This document shows positions 10,330 through 18,219 of a DNA stretch of 64,000 nucleotides, piece by piece. Position 1 is the stretch's first letter, and each line of letters begins with the position of its first letter. The notes under the pieces were generated by a model that did no database searches, was not told the origin of the DNA, and saw only the letters and a program-made list of their open reading frames with translations. This stretch comes from Sphingosinicella sp. LHD-64 (GTDB lineage: Bacteria > Pseudomonadota > Alphaproteobacteria > Sphingomonadales > Sphingomonadaceae): assembly GCF_031157375.1 (NCBI RefSeq), contig NZ_JAVIFV010000001.1, positions 930,001-994,000 on the forward strand. Reading direction: 5' to 3'. The translations under genes and the position numbers were made by a program.

Positions 10330-10689
10330 TTAGCCCCGCCAGCGGTCCCAGTCGCGGCGTTCGTAGCGCAGGCGCGCATGGACGGTATTCACGCGGCTCT
10401 GCAGATCGCGCACCTCGCGCCGGTCGAGCCCGTTGCGCGAATAGCGGGCATAGAGCCGGCGGATGTCGTTCGCCTCGCGGCGCAGGCCGAACGCCTCGCG
10501 GCGCGAGATCGTGCGGCGCTGCTCGGCGCGAGTGATCCGGCGATCGAGCTGGTTGATGTCCTGCTGGATCTGGCGATTGGCGCCGGGGTGCAGACGCCAT
10601 GCCGGCTGGGCGACGGCCGGCGACGCGACGATGGCAGTCGAGCCGATCGTGGCGGTGGCCAGCGCGATGGAAACAAGAACCTTACGCAT
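10330..10689 (-). CDS. Small secreted coiled-coil protein
   Basis: A 119-residue protein with a signal peptide (residues 1-27, cleavage after AVAQ). The mature chain is highly charged and arginine-rich, with heptad-like helices around residues 40-110 (INQLDRRITRAEQRR, LRREANDIRRLYARY). No enzymatic motif is seen. Proteins of this build are common small periplasmic proteins in sphingomonads, role unknown. It is monocistronic and has its own terminator. Confidence 0.75.
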   Translation of the reverse strand: MRKVLVSIALATATIGSTAIVASPAVAQPAWRLHPGANRQIQQDINQLDRRITRAEQRRTISRREAFGLRREANDIRRLYARYSRNGLDRREVRDLQSRVNTVHARLRYERRDWDRWRG

Positions 10690-10883
10690 GGATACTCCTC
10701 CTTCAAAACTGACGCGCTTCTACCCCGCGGGCGCTGCCCGCCGGCTGAATGCCGCCGACAGAGTCCGTTCATAAATGTCGCAATTTGTATGAACGAACCC
10801 GTCCCGCTCCACCTCGGGACGAATCGGTCGCACCCGGCCGCGGGCCTGTGCTAGAGTCGGACCGAACCCAGGGGGACGCTGGA

Positions 10884-11120
10884 ATGTCGACTGATCCGCG
10901 GACCGTCCATGTCAGCACGTCAGTCACGCCTGCGCTTGGCGAACCACAATTCGTGCTTGAGCACGGCGACAAGCTCTATCTGACACTCGCTGTTCTCGAA
11001 TATGATCCCGAGGACACCGAGGCGCAGCCACCGAGCGAGATGCTCGGCAGTGGAGAGCCCGTCCGGTCGAGATCGTCAGTATGCCCAGCTTTCCGGCGGA
11101 TCACGAAATGCTGTCGATAG
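10884..11120 (+). CDS. Small protein beside the YcaO-TfuA cluster (possible truncated precursor paralog)
   Basis: A 78-residue protein beginning MSTDPRTVHV, with GGGGGA seven bases before the ATG and a -10-like TGCTAGAGT at 10849-10857. Residues 18-56 closely match the next gene: EPQFVLEHGDKLYLTLAVLEYDP here, EPQFLIEKDGKLYLTLAVLEYDP there, and both continue to MLGSG. After GSGEP the two diverge. The remaining 18 residues are Arg/Cys-rich with poorer codon use, while another frame keeps good codon use for about 50 more codons, so a frameshift truncation is possible. No known domain. It is the first gene of the accessory locus. Confidence 0.55.
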   Translation: MSTDPRTVHVSTSVTPALGEPQFVLEHGDKLYLTLAVLEYDPEDTEAQPPSEMLGSGEPVRSRSSVCPAFRRITKCCR

Positions 11121-11202: not shown

Positions 11203-11562
11203 ATGATGGCAGGAAGAGTCGTCAATGTCGGGACGGGAGCCGCGGCCAGGGCGGCGCTGGCGGAGCCGCAATTCCTGATCGAGAAGGACGGGAAGCTTTA
11301 TCTGACGCTCGCCGTGCTCGAATACGATCCCAATCACCCGGACATCACTCAGCAGCAGCAGGCCTCGGTCACGCAGCTGCAAACCATGCTCGGCAGCGGC
11401 GGACTGCGGGCCACATTGTTGGAGGAGCCCCTCTCCGCCAGCCCGACGCAGGACGTGGCGCTGCAACAACCCCAGCAGGCCGGCATGGCGCTGCGGATGG
11501 TGGGAGGTCCGCCGCTTGGACTGCAGTTTGCCCAAACGGATCCGCCGCCGAACACATTGTGA
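11203..11562 (+). CDS. Small protein with precursor-like C-terminus, RiPP locus
   Basis: A 119-residue protein (ATG at 11203 or 11206, GGGGAGG upstream). The N-terminal half is paralogous to the preceding gene through KLYLTLAVLEYDP. The middle is Gln-rich. The C-terminus is LQFAQTDPPPNTL, and FAQTDPPPNT aligns residue by residue with the FANTEPPSxT unit repeated six times in the next gene (N to Q, E to D, S to P). I infer a related precursor with one degenerate core, or a helper protein that shares an ancestor. No signal peptide is evident and the family is not one I recognise. Confidence 0.65.
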   Translation: MMAGRVVNVGTGAAARAALAEPQFLIEKDGKLYLTLAVLEYDPNHPDITQQQQASVTQLQTMLGSGGLRATLLEEPLSASPTQDVALQQPQQAGMALRMVGGPPLGLQFAQTDPPPNTL

Positions 11563-11678: not shown

Positions 11679-11933
11679 ATGAGCGCACCCGATCCAAACG
11701 AACTAATGGATGCAGCGGAGATATTAGATGGCGGCGCAGCATCCATATCCTTCGCCAACACGGAACCTCCTTCAGTAACGTTTGCTAACACTGAGCCGCC
11801 GTCGGCGACGTTTGCGAATACCGAGCCACCATCAGCGGCGTTCGCGAATACTGAACCGCCATCAATGACGTTTGCTAACACCGAATCGCCGTCCGCGACA
11901 TTTGCCAATACAGAACCACCGCTCTTCAGCTGA
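11679..11933 (+). CDS. Candidate RiPP precursor peptide with six tandem core repeats
   Basis: An 84-residue peptide. Residues 1-24 form a leader-like segment with an acidic amphipathic stretch (NELMDAAEILDGGAAS). Residues 25-84 are six direct copies of a ten-residue unit, consensus FANTEPPSxT, where only position 9 varies freely (V, A, A, M, A) and the last copy ends PPLFS. GAGAGAAGG precedes the ATG. The gene is followed immediately, with overlap, by a YcaO gene and then tfuA, the enzyme pair known to install backbone thioamides. A leader followed by multiple cores fits a modular precursor such as that of the thiovarsolins. It could instead be a repetitive structural peptide, but the neighbours argue otherwise. 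Confidence 0.75.
   Translation: MSAPDPNELMDAAEILDGGAASISFANTEPPSVTFANTEPPSATFANTEPPSAAFANTEPPSMTFANTESPSATFANTEPPLFS
11751..11930 (+). repeat. Six tandem 30-bp coding repeats
   Basis: Six consecutive 30-base units encode FANTEPPSxT. The units differ at many third codon positions (Ala GCC/GCT/GCG, Asn AAC/AAT, Thr ACG/ACT/ACC/ACA, Pro CCT/CCG/CCA) while the amino acids stay constant, so the array is kept at the protein level and is not a recent slippage product. Confidence 0.9.
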
Positions 11934-13065
11934 TAGCGACACGCGGCACTCTGATTTTGGGCCGGCGGCCTTCGCGGACTCGGCCTTCTTCGAGCATGTG
12001 CTGGCCGCATCCGAAAAATGCGGTGTGACGCGACTTGCCGATATCACCGGCCTTGACCGGTTGTCTTTGCCTGTCTGGCAGGCGGTGCGCCCAGCCGGAC
12101 GCGCGCTCAGCGTGCATCAGGGCAAAGGCGCATCGCCAATAGCCGCGAAGATCGGCGCTCTTTGCGAAGCTATCGAAAGCCATTGCGCCGAAAATGCCCA
12201 AGCCGATGGCCCGGTCAGTCGCTTCGACGAATTGCCCGCGTCGCAAACTGCTGCGGAAATCGGAGATTTCTGCAGCAGTCGCGATGTCGTCCTTCCGGAT
12301 GAAGCGGCGATCCAATGGTGCAGAACAACCGACGCGATAACTGGCAACGCTCTCTATATCCCTCAAGCGGTGGTCTCTTTGGACTACACGAAGGGCCTGC
12401 CGAGCCCATTCGATCGCTCCAGCTCGGGACTGGGGGCCGGTCCGACCCATAGCGCTGCTCTCCAAACCTCTGTCCTGGAGCTCATCGAGCGCGACGCGGT
12501 CGGAGCGTGGCAAAGATCGGCGACGGCAATGCCAGTTTGCGACGCTATAGACTTGTCGACAGTACCCTTCGATTGGTTTCAGGCGTGGAGAGACCGTTTT
12601 CGGTCCTTCAACGTCGCCTTGGACTGTTATCCCGTGCCGTCCTTTACCAGCGTGCCGGTCTTTTGCTGCGCCATTGGAGCGCAGGAAGAATTCGGGCCGC
12701 AATATCGCCGGTTCCATGGCACGTCGGCCCATCCGGACGCGGAAGTCGCGCTTTTCAAGGCACTTGCCGAGGCAATTCAGTCCCGCCTCACCCTGATCGC
12801 CGGAGTGCGGGATGACATATTGCCGTCCTACTATTCAGCCCGAGAGGAGAAGCCGGCGGGGGCCGGAAGGCGCATCCGATTACAGCCATGGCGTGAATTT
12901 ACAGTCTCGCATTCGAGCTGGGAGGCCATCGTGGAGGAGCTGGCGATGCATGGCTACAGGCAAATCGCCGTGAAGATGCTCAGCGAGGGTTTGGAGGGGA
13001 TCGTCGTGACCAAGGCTTTCGTGCCCGGCCTCGGCTCGCTAACCCGAAGCCGCCGAGCGGCCTGA
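11902..13065 (+). CDS. YcaO-domain cyclodehydratase/thioamidation protein
   Basis: YcaO enzymes phosphorylate a peptide backbone amide with ATP so that a nucleophile can replace the oxygen. The three nucleotide-binding blocks are visible: CEAIESHCAE, VLELIERDAVGAW, and EAIQSRLTLIAGVRDDI. The usual opening GVTRLADITGLDRL and the HQGKG motif are present. No ATG exists near the front: TTG at 11902, TTG at 11872 or GTG at 11998 are possible. I favour 11902, which gives 387 residues and the normal distance to GVTRLADITGLD but overlaps the precursor gene by 32 bases in another frame without a Shine-Dalgarno. The next gene, tfuA, overlaps the stop by one base. Confidence 0.9.
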   Translation: MPIQNHRSSADSDTRHSDFGPAAFADSAFFEHVLAASEKCGVTRLADITGLDRLSLPVWQAVRPAGRALSVHQGKGASPIAAKIGALCEAIESHCAENAQADGPVSRFDELPASQTAAEIGDFCSSRDVVLPDEAAIQWCRTTDAITGNALYIPQAVVSLDYTKGLPSPFDRSSSGLGAGPTHSAALQTSVLELIERDAVGAWQRSATAMPVCDAIDLSTVPFDWFQAWRDRFRSFNVALDCYPVPSFTSVPVFCCAIGAQEEFGPQYRRFHGTSAHPDAEVALFKALAEAIQSRLTLIAGVRDDILPSYYSAREEKPAGAGRRIRLQPWREFTVSHSSWEAIVEELAMHGYRQIAVKMLSEGLEGIVVTKAFVPGLGSLTRSRRAA

Positions 13066-13889
13066 TGACGGTCGTCGCCTTTGCTGGCCCTTCCCTGCCA
13101 CCGGAGGACCGCGCCGGCGTCTATGGCGTCGAATGGTGTCCGCCGGCGGAAGCGGGTGACTTGCTGCGCCTCGATGCCGGTCCGGAGCTGACCGTCTGCC
13201 TGATCGACGGCTATTTCGACCATCGCCCGGCGGTGCGGCACAAAGAGATTCTTTTGCTCTTATCGGAGGGTGTCCGGATTCTCGGGGCAAGCAGCATCGG
13301 CGCGCTGCGCGCAGCGGAAATGGCGGCGTTGGGCATGATCGGCGTCGGCTCGATCTATCGAGCTTATGCCAGCGGTCGCATCGTTGGCGATGATGAGGTC
13401 GCTCTCATTCATGGTCCCGCCGACGCGGGATGGCGCCCGGTTTCCATTCCGCTGGTGGACGTTCGGGCGACCCTTTGCCGAGCCCTTCGCGACCGAATGC
13501 TTTTGCTGGAGGATGCCCGGTCATTGCTGATCGCCGCTGGAGAGATCCATTATATCGAGCGTTGCTGGGAGGGCCTCATTGCCGCGTCCGGCATTCCAAC
13601 TGTTGTACAGGCGCGCCTTCGGGCATGGTTGCGCGACGGGCAAATGTCGCAAAAGCGGCTCGACGCGCAAGCCTGCATCGCCGCGGCATTGGATAACTCA
13701 GCTATCCCTCCGATCCGCCCGCCGCTGGTGAGGACGGCCTTTCTCGAGGCGCTGGCACAAGAATGCGGGATTGCTCCGCCGTGGCTTCCTTCAGAACCCG
13801 TTTCAACAGCCCGAGCACCCACTCACGGCGGGCCTCCTGCTGGAAGGGATGGAAGCGAAGCACCCAGTCGAGAAGCTGTTCCTCACTGA
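13065..13889 (+). CDS. tfuA: TfuA-like protein, YcaO partner
   Basis: TfuA proteins assist YcaO enzymes in peptide thioamidation, probably by helping deliver sulfide. The 274-residue protein opens VVAFAGPSL and has the family core VCLIDGYFDHRPAVRHKEIL, then GVRILGASSIGALRAAEM, then MIGVGSIYRAYASG, all hallmark TfuA blocks. Its ATG overlaps the ycaO stop (TGATG), so the two are coupled. The last about 60 residues overlap the convergent regulator gene by 188 bases. The tail after about residue 245 is low-complexity and may be a recent extension. No transporter, protease or other tailoring gene is adjacent. Confidence 0.88.
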   Translation: MTVVAFAGPSLPPEDRAGVYGVEWCPPAEAGDLLRLDAGPELTVCLIDGYFDHRPAVRHKEILLLLSEGVRILGASSIGALRAAEMAALGMIGVGSIYRAYASGRIVGDDEVALIHGPADAGWRPVSIPLVDVRATLCRALRDRMLLLEDARSLLIAAGEIHYIERCWEGLIAASGIPTVVQARLRAWLRDGQMSQKRLDAQACIAAALDNSAIPPIRPPLVRTAFLEALAQECGIAPPWLPSEPVSTARAPTHGGPPAGRDGSEAPSREAVPH

Positions 13890-15345
13890 GTTCTCCCGAG
13901 CCGCACCAACGCGCCGCCACGGCACTACGCCAGGCCCGAGCGCGCTCGGGCGCATCGGCTGCGCCAACACCAGCCGCAGCGAGGAGCGCATAGAGATCGC
14001 TGGAGATGGTTCGCTGCGCTACCAGCGCCAGCCGTGCCGCGGCCGTAGCGAACTCCTGGTGCAGGAGATAAAGGAGACCCTCTTCCTCACGCGGCCCTTC
14101 GGTGGCGAACAGCGTCAGGCTTCGGCAGCGGCTCAACAGCTCGGCCGCGCGATCCAGCTCATCAAGAAACATCAGGCCGGTCGCCACCTCGACCAGCCGA
14201 ATCTGGCTGTAGGGATTGATGCGGAATGCTTCATCGAAATGCTGGAGCGCTGGCGCCGCTTCGCCTGCCCATAAATGGCACCAGCCTTTCACCGTATGGA
14301 GGTGCGATTCCGTGGGGTCTATTGCGATCGCCTTGTGCGCCAGTTCATAGGCTCGGCGACGCTCGCTCTCCCCCGTCGCGCCGAGACCGGTGAAGCAAAA
14401 GTCGGTATTGTACAAACGGATCAGCGGTGGATAGGCCTGAACGAGATCGGGATGGATCGCTATCAGCCGCTCCCACGCCGACGCCAGGTCGCGCGCCTCC
14501 TCGAGGGTATTGAGGCGGAGCATTCTTAGCCGCGCAGTGAAATAGTGATCGTAAGCGTCGTCGGGCTGAAGGGGCAGATTGCGCAGTACGTCGTCGTAGA
14601 GGCGGGGCAGAGCGGCACCGGCTACGCTGCGGGTCAGCTCCTCTGCGCCGCGCGACAAGCTTTGCTGTTCGAGCAGTATCTGATCGGCCCAGATGATCGC
14701 CCCGGTCGGCAGGCGCGATATGCGGGTGAAGGCCTGGATGCCCTCGCCATGGCGGAGCAGCCGGACGGACAGCCGATAGTCCCTCTCGCCGGAGCCGCCG
14801 TCCACGCCCGGCGCCATATCCATGTCGGAGACCAGGCGGATGTCCCGGAACCGCGAAAGCGCGATCAGCACCTCCTCCTGCAGCACCGCGCCGAGATGGG
14901 GATCCGTCTCGGCGATGGCGGTATCGTCGAAGGCCGGCACGTAGAGCAACGGGGCCCGCCCCAGACGCTGGGCCTCGGCGGTCCTGACGATCCGCGGAGG
15001 CGCCTGGGCAGACTGCCGCGTCACCTCCGGAAGCAGGCGGTAACCGCGGCCGTACACGCTTTCGATATAATGCGGCTTGCTCGACGGGTCGTCGAGCGCC
15101 CGGCGCAGCTCCTTGATGACCGAGGTCAGGGCGGACTCGGTCACGATCGTCCCATCCCAGACCGACGCGAACAGCGCGTCCTTGGTGAGCAGCTGGCCGT
15201 CCTGCTCGGCGAGCATCAGCAGCAGGCGAAACGCCTTGCGGCCGAGCTTGACCGGCCCGTTCGGCCCGACGAGCCGTTCGTCGGTGCGGACGATGGTGAA
15301 ATCGCCGAAACTGAGGTCGCATTCGCGATCGAACTCTGCCGACAT
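13702..15345 (-). CDS. Winged-helix DNA-binding protein with TPR-like C-terminal region
   Basis: A 547-residue regulator. Residues 10-105 form an OmpR/CadC-type winged helix (VKLGRKAFRLLLMLAEQDGQ, SALTSVIKELRRAL, YIESVYGRGYRL). No receiver domain and no membrane segment follow. The long remainder is helical with tetratricopeptide-like units around residues 330-500 (AYELAHKAIAIDPTESHLH, ALQHFDEAFRINPYSQ). The start at 15345 has GGAGG eight bases upstream. It is convergent with tfuA and overlaps it by 188 bases. It could regulate the RiPP locus or be unrelated; no target sites were identified. Confidence 0.8.
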   Translation of the reverse strand: MSAEFDRECDLSFGDFTIVRTDERLVGPNGPVKLGRKAFRLLLMLAEQDGQLLTKDALFASVWDGTIVTESALTSVIKELRRALDDPSSKPHYIESVYGRGYRLLPEVTRQSAQAPPRIVRTAEAQRLGRAPLLYVPAFDDTAIAETDPHLGAVLQEEVLIALSRFRDIRLVSDMDMAPGVDGGSGERDYRLSVRLLRHGEGIQAFTRISRLPTGAIIWADQILLEQQSLSRGAEELTRSVAGAALPRLYDDVLRNLPLQPDDAYDHYFTARLRMLRLNTLEEARDLASAWERLIAIHPDLVQAYPPLIRLYNTDFCFTGLGATGESERRRAYELAHKAIAIDPTESHLHTVKGWCHLWAGEAAPALQHFDEAFRINPYSQIRLVEVATGLMFLDELDRAAELLSRCRSLTLFATEGPREEEGLLYLLHQEFATAAARLALVAQRTISSDLYALLAAAGVGAADAPERARAWRSAVAARWCGSGELSEEQLLDWVLRFHPFQQEARREWVLGLLKRVLKEATAEQSRILVPAPRERPSSPAAGGSEG

Positions 15346-15504: not shown

Positions 15505-15693
15505 ATGGACCGCCGTAGCTTCGACCATGTCGCCAAGCCGATCGCACTCGCCCTGCTGCTGGGCGTGATCCTGATTCTGCACCCAGGGAGGCTGTTTTGC
15601 ATTCACCCTTCGCCCGTACTTACCGCTGCGCCGTCGCCGCCGGCGCCGCCAGCCGCTGCCAAGTTCTCGCGCGTTCAGGTGGCCCGGCCGTGA
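15505..15693 (+). CDS. Short single-span membrane peptide
   Basis: A possible 62-residue peptide with one hydrophobic segment (IALALLLGVILIL) and a Pro/Ala-rich tail. No clear Shine-Dalgarno precedes the ATG. It gains support because its TGA overlaps a GTG (GTGA, 15690-15693) that is a plausible start of the following acetyltransferase, and because GC-rich codon use is maintained. The function is unknown and the gene may not be real. Confidence 0.35.
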   Translation: MDRRSFDHVAKPIALALLLGVILILHPGRLFCIHPSPVLTAAPSPPAPPAAAKFSRVQVARP

Positions 15694-16412
15694 ACGAGTG
15701 GGCCGCCAATGACGACGCCGCTGGCCAGGCGATTGCGGGTCCGCCCTGGACGCGTCTGTTCGGCCGGGGCCCGTTGCCCGCCGATGGCCCGGCGAACAAC
15801 GACTCGGCGCCCGCCCGAAACGGGGATGAAGCGCGTCCGGCGCTTGCCGCGCCGATCGCCATACCGCCGCGGCTGGCGCCGAGCCTCACCGCGCCGCGCT
15901 TCCCGCGCCGGATCGAAACGCCGCGCCTCGCGCTCGACATGCCGACGCTGGAGGATTTCCACGCACTGCAACGCATGGCGGCGGATGCATCGATGTTCCG
16001 CTATTCCGAGCGCGGCGCGATGACGGCCGACGAGGCGTGGAACCTGCTGCTGCGCCATGTCGGGCACTGGCTGGTGGCCGGCTACGGCGTCTTCACCGTC
16101 CGGGACAAGGCGAGCGGCCGCTTTGCCGGCCTGGTCGGCGGCTCCTCCTTCCAGCGCAATCTCGGCCCGGACTTCGATGCCGTTCCCGAAATGACCTGGA
16201 CGATCGCCTCCGAATTCCGCGGGCGCGGCTTCGCGACCGAGGCGGCGGCGGCCGTCGTGGAGGCCGTCGAGGCGCAGCCTGCGCTGCAATCGACCGTGTG
16301 CCTCATCCATGTCGACAACCAGGCGTCGTTGCGCGTCGCGGCGAAGCTCGGCTTCCGCTTCTTCCGGTACTGCGACTATCGCGGCTACGGCGCCGGGCTG
16401 TTCTGCCGCTGA
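15690..16412 (+). CDS. RimJ/RimL-type GNAT acetyltransferase
   Basis: From the GTG at 15690 the protein has 240 residues. A TTG at 15597, preceded by AGGGAGG at ideal distance, would add 31 residues. The first about 75 residues are low-complexity, then the GNAT_3-type domain starts at RRIETPRLALDMPTLEDFHAL. The acetyl-CoA motif is WTIASEFRGRGFATEAAAA and the fold ends with HVDNQASLRVAAKLGFRFF. Such enzymes acetylate protein N-termini or small molecules; the substrate is unknown. It is convergent with the DUF885 peptidase gene, eight bases apart. Confidence 0.85.
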   Translation: MNEWAANDDAAGQAIAGPPWTRLFGRGPLPADGPANNDSAPARNGDEARPALAAPIAIPPRLAPSLTAPRFPRRIETPRLALDMPTLEDFHALQRMAADASMFRYSERGAMTADEAWNLLLRHVGHWLVAGYGVFTVRDKASGRFAGLVGGSSFQRNLGPDFDAVPEMTWTIASEFRGRGFATEAAAAVVEAVEAQPALQSTVCLIHVDNQASLRVAAKLGFRFFRYCDYRGYGAGLFCR

Positions 16413-16419
16413 GCGCCGG

Positions 16420-18219
16420 TCAGCCGGTGGTCCGGCCGGCCGGGGTCGCCGGCGCGTTCTCGACGCTGGCGATCCAGGCGCGGACCTGCTCCTCGAGCAC
16501 CGGCAGCGGCACCGAGCCGAGGCCGAGGATGGTGTCATGGAACCCGCGCTGGTCGAAGCGCGTGCCGAGCCGCTGCTCGGCCTCGGCGCGTAGGCGGCGG
16601 ATGGTGATCTCGCCGAGCTTGTAGGCGACCGCCTGGCCGGGCCAGGCGATGTAGCGATCGACTTCGGTCGTGATCTCATGCTCGGAAAGCGCGGTATTGT
16701 CGCGAAGATAGGCGAGCGCGCGATCGCGGCTCCAGCCGAACTGGTGGATGCCGGTATCGACCACCAGCCGGCAGGCGCGCCACATCTCGTAGGTGAGGCG
16801 GCCGAAATCCTCGTAGGGGGTCTGGTAGATGCCCATGACGGTGCCGAGCCACTCCGTGTAGAGGCCCCAGCCTTCGCCATAGCCGGAGAAATAGGTCTCC
16901 TGGCGGAACGCGGGGCGATTCGGCCCCTCCAGCGCCAGCGCCGCCTGGAAGCTGTGGCCCGGCGTGCATTCGTGCAGGGCCAGCGACGGCAGCGTGTAGA
17001 GCGGGCGGGCCGGCAGATTGTAGGTGTTAAACATGCAGTTCTGCAGGCCGCCGCGGCCGCCGGTGTAGATGGGGGCAAGCTCGTCCGGCACCGGAATGAT
17101 GCCGTGGCGGTAACGGGGCAGCGTGCCGATGATGTTCCTGAGCTGCCCTTGCGCCCGCATCACGACATAGGAGGCATAGCCGAGCAGCTCGTTGGGCGTC
17201 TTCGCATAGAATTGCGGATCGGTGCGCAGGAACTGGAGGAATTCCGGGAAGGTGCCGGTGAAGTTCGCCCGGCGCATCACCTGCTCCATCTCGGCGCGAA
17301 TGCGCGCGACTTCGCGAAGACCGGTCTGATGGACTTCCTGCGGGGTGATCTCAAGGGTGGTGAACTTGCGGATCATCGCCTGGTAATAGGCTTCGCCGTC
17401 CGGCATCTCGGAGGCGCCGATCGCGGTGCGCGTCTGGCGCATATAGTCGTTGCGCATGAAATCGAGCAGCGCGCGATAGGCGGGCGCCGCCGCTTCGCGG
17501 ATCGCGGCCAGGCCTTCGGTGCGGAGCTGCTGCTGCTCGGCCGCCGGGATGTTTGACGGCATATGGGTGAACGCGCGGAACAGCGGGCTGGTCTCGTCGG
17601 CGGCGAGATAGGGTTCGATCGTCGCGTCGCGCCCGGTCACCGAAACGCGGGGCACGCTGAAGCCGCGCGCCAGGCCGGTGCGCATGTTGGCGATATTCTC
17701 GTCGAAATAGCGGGGGATATCGCACAGGCGCCCGATATAGCGGCGATATTCCTCGGCATTGTCGAAGCCCTGGCGTGGACCGATCCCCGCCCAGAAGAAG
17801 GTGTCTGCGTTGAACGGCGCCTCGTAGATCTTGAAGCGCACGTCGTTCGCCAGACCTTCGATCGAGGCGCGGAACACGGCGGCGTTGATCTTCTCCTCGG
17901 GCGACAGCTGGTCGACCGGAATGGCGTCGAGCTGCCGCAGCACATTCTCCCAATAGGCGAGCCGCGCCGCCTGCGACGCCGCATCGACCTTCGGGAGATG
18001 ATCGGCGAGCGCGCCCGGGCCGGAGCCCTCCAGCTGGCCGAGCTCGTTCTGCCGCCATGCCCATTCGGCGTTGTAGAGCGCGCGGAGCCGCTCGTCGGCG
18101 CGGCTCGGCGCCGTGGCAGTGCCCTGTGCGCCCGCCGTTTGGGCAAGTGCGCCGTTCCCCGGCAGCAATCCCAGACACACCGAAGCCAACAGAAGATGGA
18201 CGGCGACACGCTCGCGCAT
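16420..18219 (-). CDS. DUF885-family secreted metallopeptidase-like protein
   Basis: A 599-residue exported protein with a signal peptide (residues 1-27). It belongs to the DUF885 family, related to zinc peptidases. The probable metal site is LHECTPGHSFQ (HExxxxH form of the family), with the downstream YGEGWGLYTEW block supplying the further glutamate. The mature enzyme would act in the periplasm on peptides. GAGGAG lies eight bases before the ATG. A 19-bp palindrome (18241-18259) sits 21 bases upstream, and a near-identical copy precedes the TonB receptor gene, so this gene is probably controlled by the adjacent GntR protein. Confidence 0.85.
   Translation of the reverse strand: MRERVAVHLLLASVCLGLLPGNGALAQTAGAQGTATAPSRADERLRALYNAEWAWRQNELGQLEGSGPGALADHLPKVDAASQAARLAYWENVLRQLDAIPVDQLSPEEKINAAVFRASIEGLANDVRFKIYEAPFNADTFFWAGIGPRQGFDNAEEYRRYIGRLCDIPRYFDENIANMRTGLARGFSVPRVSVTGRDATIEPYLAADETSPLFRAFTHMPSNIPAAEQQQLRTEGLAAIREAAAPAYRALLDFMRNDYMRQTRTAIGASEMPDGEAYYQAMIRKFTTLEITPQEVHQTGLREVARIRAEMEQVMRRANFTGTFPEFLQFLRTDPQFYAKTPNELLGYASYVVMRAQGQLRNIIGTLPRYRHGIIPVPDELAPIYTGGRGGLQNCMFNTYNLPARPLYTLPSLALHECTPGHSFQAALALEGPNRPAFRQETYFSGYGEGWGLYTEWLGTVMGIYQTPYEDFGRLTYEMWRACRLVVDTGIHQFGWSRDRALAYLRDNTALSEHEITTEVDRYIAWPGQAVAYKLGEITIRRLRAEAEQRLGTRFDQRGFHDTILGLGSVPLPVLEEQVRAWIASVENAPATPAGRTTG

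What the first reader, a model, noticed from the sequence alone, without database searches (positions are those of the whole stretch)
11679..13889. Compact YcaO-TfuA RiPP cluster with a six-repeat FANTEPPSxT precursor
A short leader is followed by six decapeptide copies, then directly by YcaO and TfuA, the enzyme pair known to make backbone thioamides. The core motif FANTEPPS is not one I recognise from thiovarsolins, thioamitides, methanobactins or other described families. Multi-core precursors release several identical small products, so the cluster may make a modified 8-10 residue peptide. No protease or exporter is adjacent, so these functions would be supplied elsewhere or the peptide acts inside the cell.
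Basis: partly seen in the sequence, partly recalled or inferred. Interest (0 to 1): 0.92.

Follow-up and report, generated by a model that had tools for sequence, protein, structure and literature searches.

The report
Repeat-core thioamide peptide cassette with regulator
A sphingomonad bacterium carries a small gene set that probably swaps oxygen for sulfur in short repeated peptides, and in its relatives this set travels with a dedicated regulator that may be reading those peptides.

Summary
In detail: an 84-aa ORF (11679-11933) with six decapeptide copies, then YcaO (PF02624) and TfuA (PF07812). FANTEPP codons vary almost only synonymously between copies. The gene upstream (11203-11562) is a leader-bearing precursor with one C-terminal core, FAQTDPP. 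Its leader family lies beside YcaO in 18 of 397 sphingomonad genomes; 8 of 14 representatives carry [NQ]T near the C-terminus. FANTEPP is the local, leaderless, six-fold form of that wider core; two congeners have other multi-core forms. Of 397 genomes, 29 have this YcaO, 28 the regulator's sensor half, 27 both, lying close together in 25; in 18 genomes the regulator co-diverges with YcaO as tightly as TfuA does. Best reading: a transferable YcaO-TfuA RiPP cassette, probably thioamidating the core Asn/Gln, whose product is likely sensed by this regulator. The chemistry and the sensing are inferred, not shown. New variant of a known kind.

The parts
10797..10797 (.). left end of synteny with congeners; what follows differs between genomes
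   Evidence: blastn homology of the hslO-argD side ends at window 10795-10797 in 4 of 5 congeners compared, at 10572 in the fifth
10884..11120 (+). leader-only copy (78 aa), no core; probably a decaying duplicate of the next gene
   Evidence: 48% identity to 11206-11559, E 4.7e-12; leader HMM 3.7e-10 over model positions 4-45 only
11203..11562 (+). leader-bearing precursor, one C-terminal core FAQTDPPPNTL (start ATG 11203 or 11206)
   Evidence: Homologues beside YcaO in relatives; alignment A1
11679..11933 (+). leaderless multi-core peptide gene, six copies of FANTEPPSxT-like decapeptide
11751..11930 (+). the six core copies
   Evidence: synonymous divergence, pS 0.96 / pN 0.02 over FANTEPP
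11872..13065 (+). YcaO (start uncertain: TTG 11872, TTG 11902 or GTG 11998)
   Evidence: PF02624 2.4e-43; only YcaO match in this genome; aligns to MJ1094, 6pe3, E 1.2e-12
13065..13889 (+). TfuA; 3' end overlaps the convergent regulator
   Evidence: PF07812 1.6e-41; 6xp8 E 4e-28
13702..15345 (-). winged-helix (Trans_reg_C) + middle domain + TPR regulator, 547 aa, no membrane-like stretch
   Evidence: PF00486 1.9e-17, weak TPR; AlphaFold pLDDT 89.7; co-occurrence and co-divergence with YcaO; max 19-residue hydropathy 1.16
15597..16412 (+). GNAT acetyltransferase, optional part (start uncertain)
   Evidence: PF13302 8.8e-24; homologue in 7 of 25 loci

Best explanation
A transferable RiPP cassette of sphingomonads. 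(1) Short precursors are made: here one with a conserved ~70-residue leader and a single C-terminal core (FAQTDPP), and one without that leader carrying six cores (FANTEPP). (2) YcaO, fed with sulfide by TfuA, converts one backbone amide per core to a thioamide, most likely at the conserved Asn/Gln before Thr. (3) General cellular peptidases release small peptides; in some genomes a linked GNAT may cap them. (4) The peptide, made in several copies per precursor for high yield, is bound by the TPR half of the linked cytosolic winged-helix regulator, which then adjusts transcription of the cassette or other genes. Shown by sequence: the genes, the core family, the multi-core forms, the linkage and co-divergence of the regulator. 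Inferred: thioamidation, its site, release, binding and response.
For: Enzyme pair. Repeats under protein-level constraint. Leader family first found with a two-sequence seed beside YcaO in other genera; the 21-row model then hit 19 of 397 genomes, 18 of them at YcaO, the 19th (G055, 2.6e-4) not, and no copy elsewhere in those genomes (the 18 are rows of the model, so only the absence elsewhere is independent). [NQ]T in the last 22 residues in 8 of 14 representatives, shuffles 1.8-2.3, about 2 of 20,000 as high. Multi-core forms in G023 (3 cores) and G004 (2 cores, no leader). A 2026 preprint shows YcaO-TfuA thioamidating Asn in SNKEWQE (PMC13174530, passages). Regulator: within 3.5 kb of YcaO in 23 of 25 fetched loci; best genome match is the linked copy in 22 of 25 genomes (with 17); YcaO 29, sensor half 28, both 27 of 397 (Fisher 2e-38, genomes not independent); partial r given argD 0.77 for YcaO-regulator, 0.78 for YcaO-TfuA, 0 of 5000 permutations, 18 genomes. 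The DNA-binding half differs (OmpR-type or SARP/BTAD-type) while the sensor half is kept.
Against: No chemistry seen. 6 of 14 representatives lack strict [NQ]T in the tail; G095 and G325, not in the 14, lack it too. One genome with YcaO (G063) lacks the regulator, G141 too (fragmented), in G179 it lies 13 kb away, in G109 on another contig. Co-divergence could reflect mere travel as one cassette. TPR folds match very many unrelated proteins. The leaderless repeat may not be a substrate. No promoter-like or Rfam match was found.
Confidence: 0.5

Rival explanations
1. Same RiPP chemistry, but the regulator is an ordinary pathway-specific activator that responds to something else, and the peptide is an exported bioactive compound.
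For: SARP/BTAD-type regulators are commonly pathway activators in actinobacteria (recalled). The regulator is linked irrespective of its DNA-binding type. TPR sensors bind many things.
Against: No transporter is conserved in 25 loci; the sensor half, not the DNA-binding half, is the conserved part.
Confidence: 0.3
2. The real substrate is the leader-bearing single-core precursor 11203-11562; the six-fold repeat ORF is a by-product or a decoy that is not modified.
For: The leader is the conserved element across genera; the repeat ORF has none.
Against: FANTEPP is held at protein level across copies; G004's only candidate also lacks the leader, and G023 has three cores.
Confidence: 0.12
3. YcaO makes another backbone change (azoline or amidine) instead of a thioamide.
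For: YcaO enzymes do several reactions (general knowledge); the core Thr could be an azoline site.
Against: TfuA is adjacent, or fused in L057, and TfuA is tied to thioamide formation (PMC6511847, PMC8120280, passages); no dehydrogenase or RRE seen in the window genes scanned.
Confidence: 0.06
4. The pair modifies a host protein, as archaeal pairs do on methyl-coenzyme M reductase, and the small ORFs are incidental.
For: Best family models are the McrA ones.
Against: Scores are below those models' cut-offs (YcaO 122 of 365 bits, TfuA 171.5 of 235.2); small peptides of one family sit directly upstream in many genera.
Confidence: 0.02

Closest known systems
Thiovarsolins (Streptomyces varsoviensis; PMC6511847, passages)
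   Same: Repeating precursor, YcaO and TfuA; precursor + YcaO + TfuA suffice for thiovarsolin B; no dedicated protease; N-acetylated product, and here a GNAT is linked in 7 of 25 loci.
   Different: Core there APR; extra heme-oxygenase-like, ATP-grasp, amidinotransferase and MFS genes. Here core is [F]A[NQ]T-type, a different leader, and a regulator is the constant neighbour.
std cluster (Streptomyces thermodiastaticus; PMC13174530, preprint, passages)
   Same: YcaO-TfuA acts on a core with a conserved Asn and thioamidates the Asn backbone.
   Different: Core SNKEWQE, MNIO and a peptidase-carbamoyltransferase fusion; none seen near the window's pair.
TfuA-related clusters from global mining (PMC8120280; sections 11-13 and passages read)
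   Same: YcaO-TfuA with a nearby small ORF; that study reports 797 precursor families, most BGCs in Proteobacteria.
   Different: The text does not mention Sphingo-, a repeat precursor or a TPR regulator; its supplement was not readable here, so the family may be listed there unnamed.
CadC / SARP type one-component regulators
   Same: Winged-helix or BTAD half joined to a TolB-like/TPR half; CadC periplasmic domain and ToxR DNA-binding domain are among the top fold matches.
   Different: No membrane-like segment; linked to a RiPP pair.
RRNPP peptide receptors (Rap, PlcR and kin; recalled)
   Different: Gram-positive, XRE-type HTH, unmodified secreted peptides (recalled); here OmpR or SARP type DNA-binding and a modifying enzyme pair.

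Membership tests
YcaO-TfuA thioamidated RiPP cluster | YcaO domain with the ATP-binding stretches | tested here: met
   PF02624 2.4e-43; GKG..E..E, E..ERDA and E..QSR stretches align with MJ1094
YcaO-TfuA thioamidated RiPP cluster | adjacent TfuA | tested here: met
   PF07812 1.6e-41, ATG overlaps YcaO stop
YcaO-TfuA thioamidated RiPP cluster | adjacent precursor peptide | tested here: met
   11203-11562 and 11679-11933
YcaO-TfuA thioamidated RiPP cluster | backbone thioamide in the product | not testable with these tools
   needs mass spectrometry
YcaO-TfuA thioamidated RiPP cluster | ThiS-like sulfur carrier for TfuA | not tested
   carrier role taken from a passage of PMC13063428; the genome was not searched for it
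Thiovarsolins | APR/GPR core repeats | tested here: not met
   repeats are FANTEPP-type
McrA-glycine thioamidation pair (TIGR03266 / NF033432) | score over the curated cut-off | tested here: not met
   122.1 of 365 and 171.5 of 235.2 bits
Leader family of sphingomonad YcaO precursors (defined here) | leader HMM match | tested here: met
   11206-11478: 5.0e-22, 10905-11030: 3.7e-10; not met by 11679-11933, best E 2.8
RRNPP receptors | TPR domain | tested here: met
   TPR in Pfam weak for the window copy (TPR_2 0.0083), clear in relatives (4.9e-7, 4.3e-9); helical repeat model
RRNPP receptors | XRE-type HTH | tested here: not met
   Trans_reg_C 1.9e-17 instead
RRNPP receptors | binds an imported or internal peptide | not testable with these tools
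   needs a binding assay

The most novel reading that the evidence does not exclude
A peptide-signalling circuit of Gram-negative bacteria in which a ribosomal peptide must be thioamidated to become the ligand of a cytosolic winged-helix/TPR (or SARP/TPR) regulator; the whole circuit (precursor, YcaO, TfuA, receptor) moves between sphingomonads as one cassette, and lineages raise the signal dose by multiplying the core and dropping the leader.
Probability: 0.33. Interest if true: 0.88.

Novelty: new variant of a known kind. Interest (0 to 1): 0.62.

Why it matters
Few YcaO-TfuA products are known, and the function of thioamidated peptides in Proteobacteria is open. Here the pair has a recognisable precursor family, a core with a conserved Asn/Gln-Thr, and a single, co-diverging regulator, so both the product and its cellular role become directly testable with four genes. 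If the regulator binds the product, it would be a signalling use of backbone thioamidation, which my literature searches did not turn up.

Tried and rejected
Rejected: (a) FANTEPPS as a conserved substrate motif: a degenerate DNA pattern for FA[NQKH]T[ED]PP hit this genome six times (five repeats plus FAQTDPP) and four of 282 other genomes once each, no more than the reversed control (five genomes). (b) A conserved 'F[EQ]HT.[LM]W' small ORF after TfuA in other alphaproteobacteria: it is the C-terminus of TfuA. (c) Six regulator matches among 20 class-level loci: two (L165, L168) are weak TPR-only matches; four stand; no chance control was run for them. (d) Known fold for the leader: model pLDDT 71.8, pTM 0.42, no PDB match at E 0.001 or better; one profile search of PDB sequences gave only E 0.12 or worse. 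(e) Known family for the precursors: of 21 members, NCBIfam gave NF003372 (hypothetical protein) for five at best E 0.0047, Pfam best 0.047: treated as chance. (f) Plasmid collection: two weak low-complexity tblastn matches. (h) A clean empty site: left flank synteny ends at 10795-10797, but the right flank (DUF885) lies elsewhere in two congeners looked at, so insertion is not proven. (i) Leader acting in trans from 10884-11120 on the repeat peptide: possible, but that copy looks like a decaying duplicate. (j) Promoters, terminators and Rfam: nothing above background. Rows dropped: the [NQ]T count used 14 representatives, one per genus or near-identical group as I chose them; the congruence test used 18 of 25 fetched loci (genus g85 left out because its best argD match, 47-48%, looks like a paralogue; G325, G063, G179, G297 had no argD fetched).

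Full report
What is there. The window lies in a 3.89-Mb genome (G000, window at C1:930001-994000) whose congeners include Sphingosinicella sp. CPCC 101087 (L007, contig of the same length as G009:C1). The ORF 11679-11933 holds six decapeptide copies. Five read FANTEPP and one FANTESP in the first seven positions; the last three positions drift. The copies differ at the DNA level almost only at synonymous positions: pS 0.96, pN 0.02 over FANTEPP, and 1 nonsynonymous codon where 15.1 +/- 1.8 would be expected. So the peptide is translated and held at protein level. YcaO and TfuA follow (PF02624 2.4e-43, PF07812 1.6e-41); the genome has no other YcaO match. NCBIfam places YcaO over the cut-off of the general YcaO kinase-domain model and both proteins below the cut-offs of the McrA-thioamidation models. 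By sequence the nearest solved proteins are MJ1094 (6pe3, 1.2e-12) and a TfuA protein (6xp8, 4e-28).

A missed precursor. Directly upstream, 11203-11562 ends in LQFAQTDPPPNTL. Its first ~70 residues are a leader-like domain, EPQFLIEKDGKLYLTLAVLEYDP..., predicted as strands and one helix with modest confidence (pLDDT 71.8). A two-sequence seed found relatives beside YcaO in other genera. Their tails end FEATDPPHN, YQQTGPEEGGG, SPLNTGPRV, MAQTNPIAPDE, FQQTWGGGN, PVNTGTSG and so on. In 8 of 14 representatives an [NQ]T dipeptide lies in the last 22 residues; shuffles give 1.8 (whole protein) or 2.3 (tail only), about 2 of 20,000 as high. Six of the 14 do not have it in strict form (for example EATDP, QSTGP, ELSGP, ANIED, AMIGS), nor do G095 and G325, which I left out of the 14. 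With the 21-row model, 19 of 397 family genomes matched at E 0.001; 18 are at YcaO and one (G055, 2.6e-4) is not. All 18 are rows of the model, so the independent part is that no further copy appeared elsewhere. The window has one more leader copy, 10884-11120, 48% identical to its neighbour and without a core.

Multi-core forms. Three of the five congeners with TfuA (5 of 26 genomes) carry multi-core peptides: the window (six FANTEPP, no leader), G023 (three (F/S/M)AN(I)(G/E)D after a worn leader) and G004 (two ANI(R/D)P in a 47-aa ORF without leader). In G023 and G004 the gene sits between TfuA and the regulator. G009 and G024 have single-core leader peptides. So core multiplication with leader loss seems to be going on in this genus. 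Multi-core peptides of other sequence also lie upstream of YcaO in four of 20 class-level loci (SAEIF/SADLY twice in L165, L168; GKQRFA two or three times in L172, L174).

Cassette boundaries. Homology of the hslO-argD side ends at window 10795-10797 in four of five congeners and at 10572 in the fifth. Three of the five (G018, G003, G011) lack TfuA; the other two carry it elsewhere. The right side could not be closed: the DUF885 neighbour lies elsewhere in the two congeners looked at. A GNAT acetyltransferase gene beyond the regulator has homologues in 7 of 25 loci.

How it likely works. YcaO activates a backbone amide with ATP and TfuA releases sulfide from a carrier (roles from PMC13063428 passage, and PMC6511847 passages). 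A 2026 preprint shows a YcaO-TfuA pair thioamidating Asn (PMC13174530 passages); the conserved Asn/Gln of the present core is the natural candidate. In thiovarsolin biosynthesis a repeating precursor, YcaO and TfuA suffice, with release by endogenous peptidases proposed, so the lack of a protease here is no objection. With no conserved exporter and one constant, co-diverging, cytosolic TPR regulator, I think the likeliest role is an intracellularly read signal or feedback ligand. That step rests on linkage alone.

Literature. Searches for YcaO + TfuA with Sphingomonas, with transcriptional regulator and tetratricopeptide, and thioamidat + RiPP + alphaproteobacteria gave no paper in the held library. 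PMC8120280 (abstract, sections 11-13, passages) reports 797 precursor families from TfuA clusters, most in Proteobacteria; its supplement was not open to me, so this family may be there unnamed. PMC6511847, PMC13174530 and PMC13063428 were seen as passages only. PMC8084935 is not held.

Noticed in passing
window 11869-12000: YcaO has no ATG; its frame opens inside the fifth repeat. Starts TTG 11872, TTG 11902 or GTG 11998, none with a clear Shine-Dalgarno. L044, L046, L048 and L053 also show no ATG before the conserved part. Coupling or frameshifting from the precursor is conceivable.
   Followed up: partly
window 13702-13889: TfuA and the convergent regulator overlap by 188 bp, both with C-terminal extensions.
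   Followed up: no
window 16420-18219: DUF885 protein next to the cassette; the genome has 14 matches at E 1e-30, and a DUF885-like homologue is also near the L041 cassette.
   Followed up: partly
L165, L168, L172, L174 upstream of YcaO: Other alphaproteobacterial YcaO-TfuA loci have multi-core short peptides: SAEIF x2, SADLY x2, GKQRFA x2 and x3.
   Followed up: no
L177, about 2.5 kb after the YcaO match start (in YcaO orientation): A 92-aa protein ending in GG that looks ThiS/MoaD-like, possibly the sulfur carrier for the pair (no family search done).
   Followed up: no
L057:7388-9292: YcaO and TfuA are fused in one 635-aa protein; five further genomes show similarly long open frames at YcaO (G157, G170, G194, G221, plus G325 itself, 642-655 aa).
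   Followed up: partly
L041:8587-8862, L042:7825-8103: These leader precursors have two AQT motifs (AAQTRPR and MAQTNPI), perhaps two cores.
   Followed up: no
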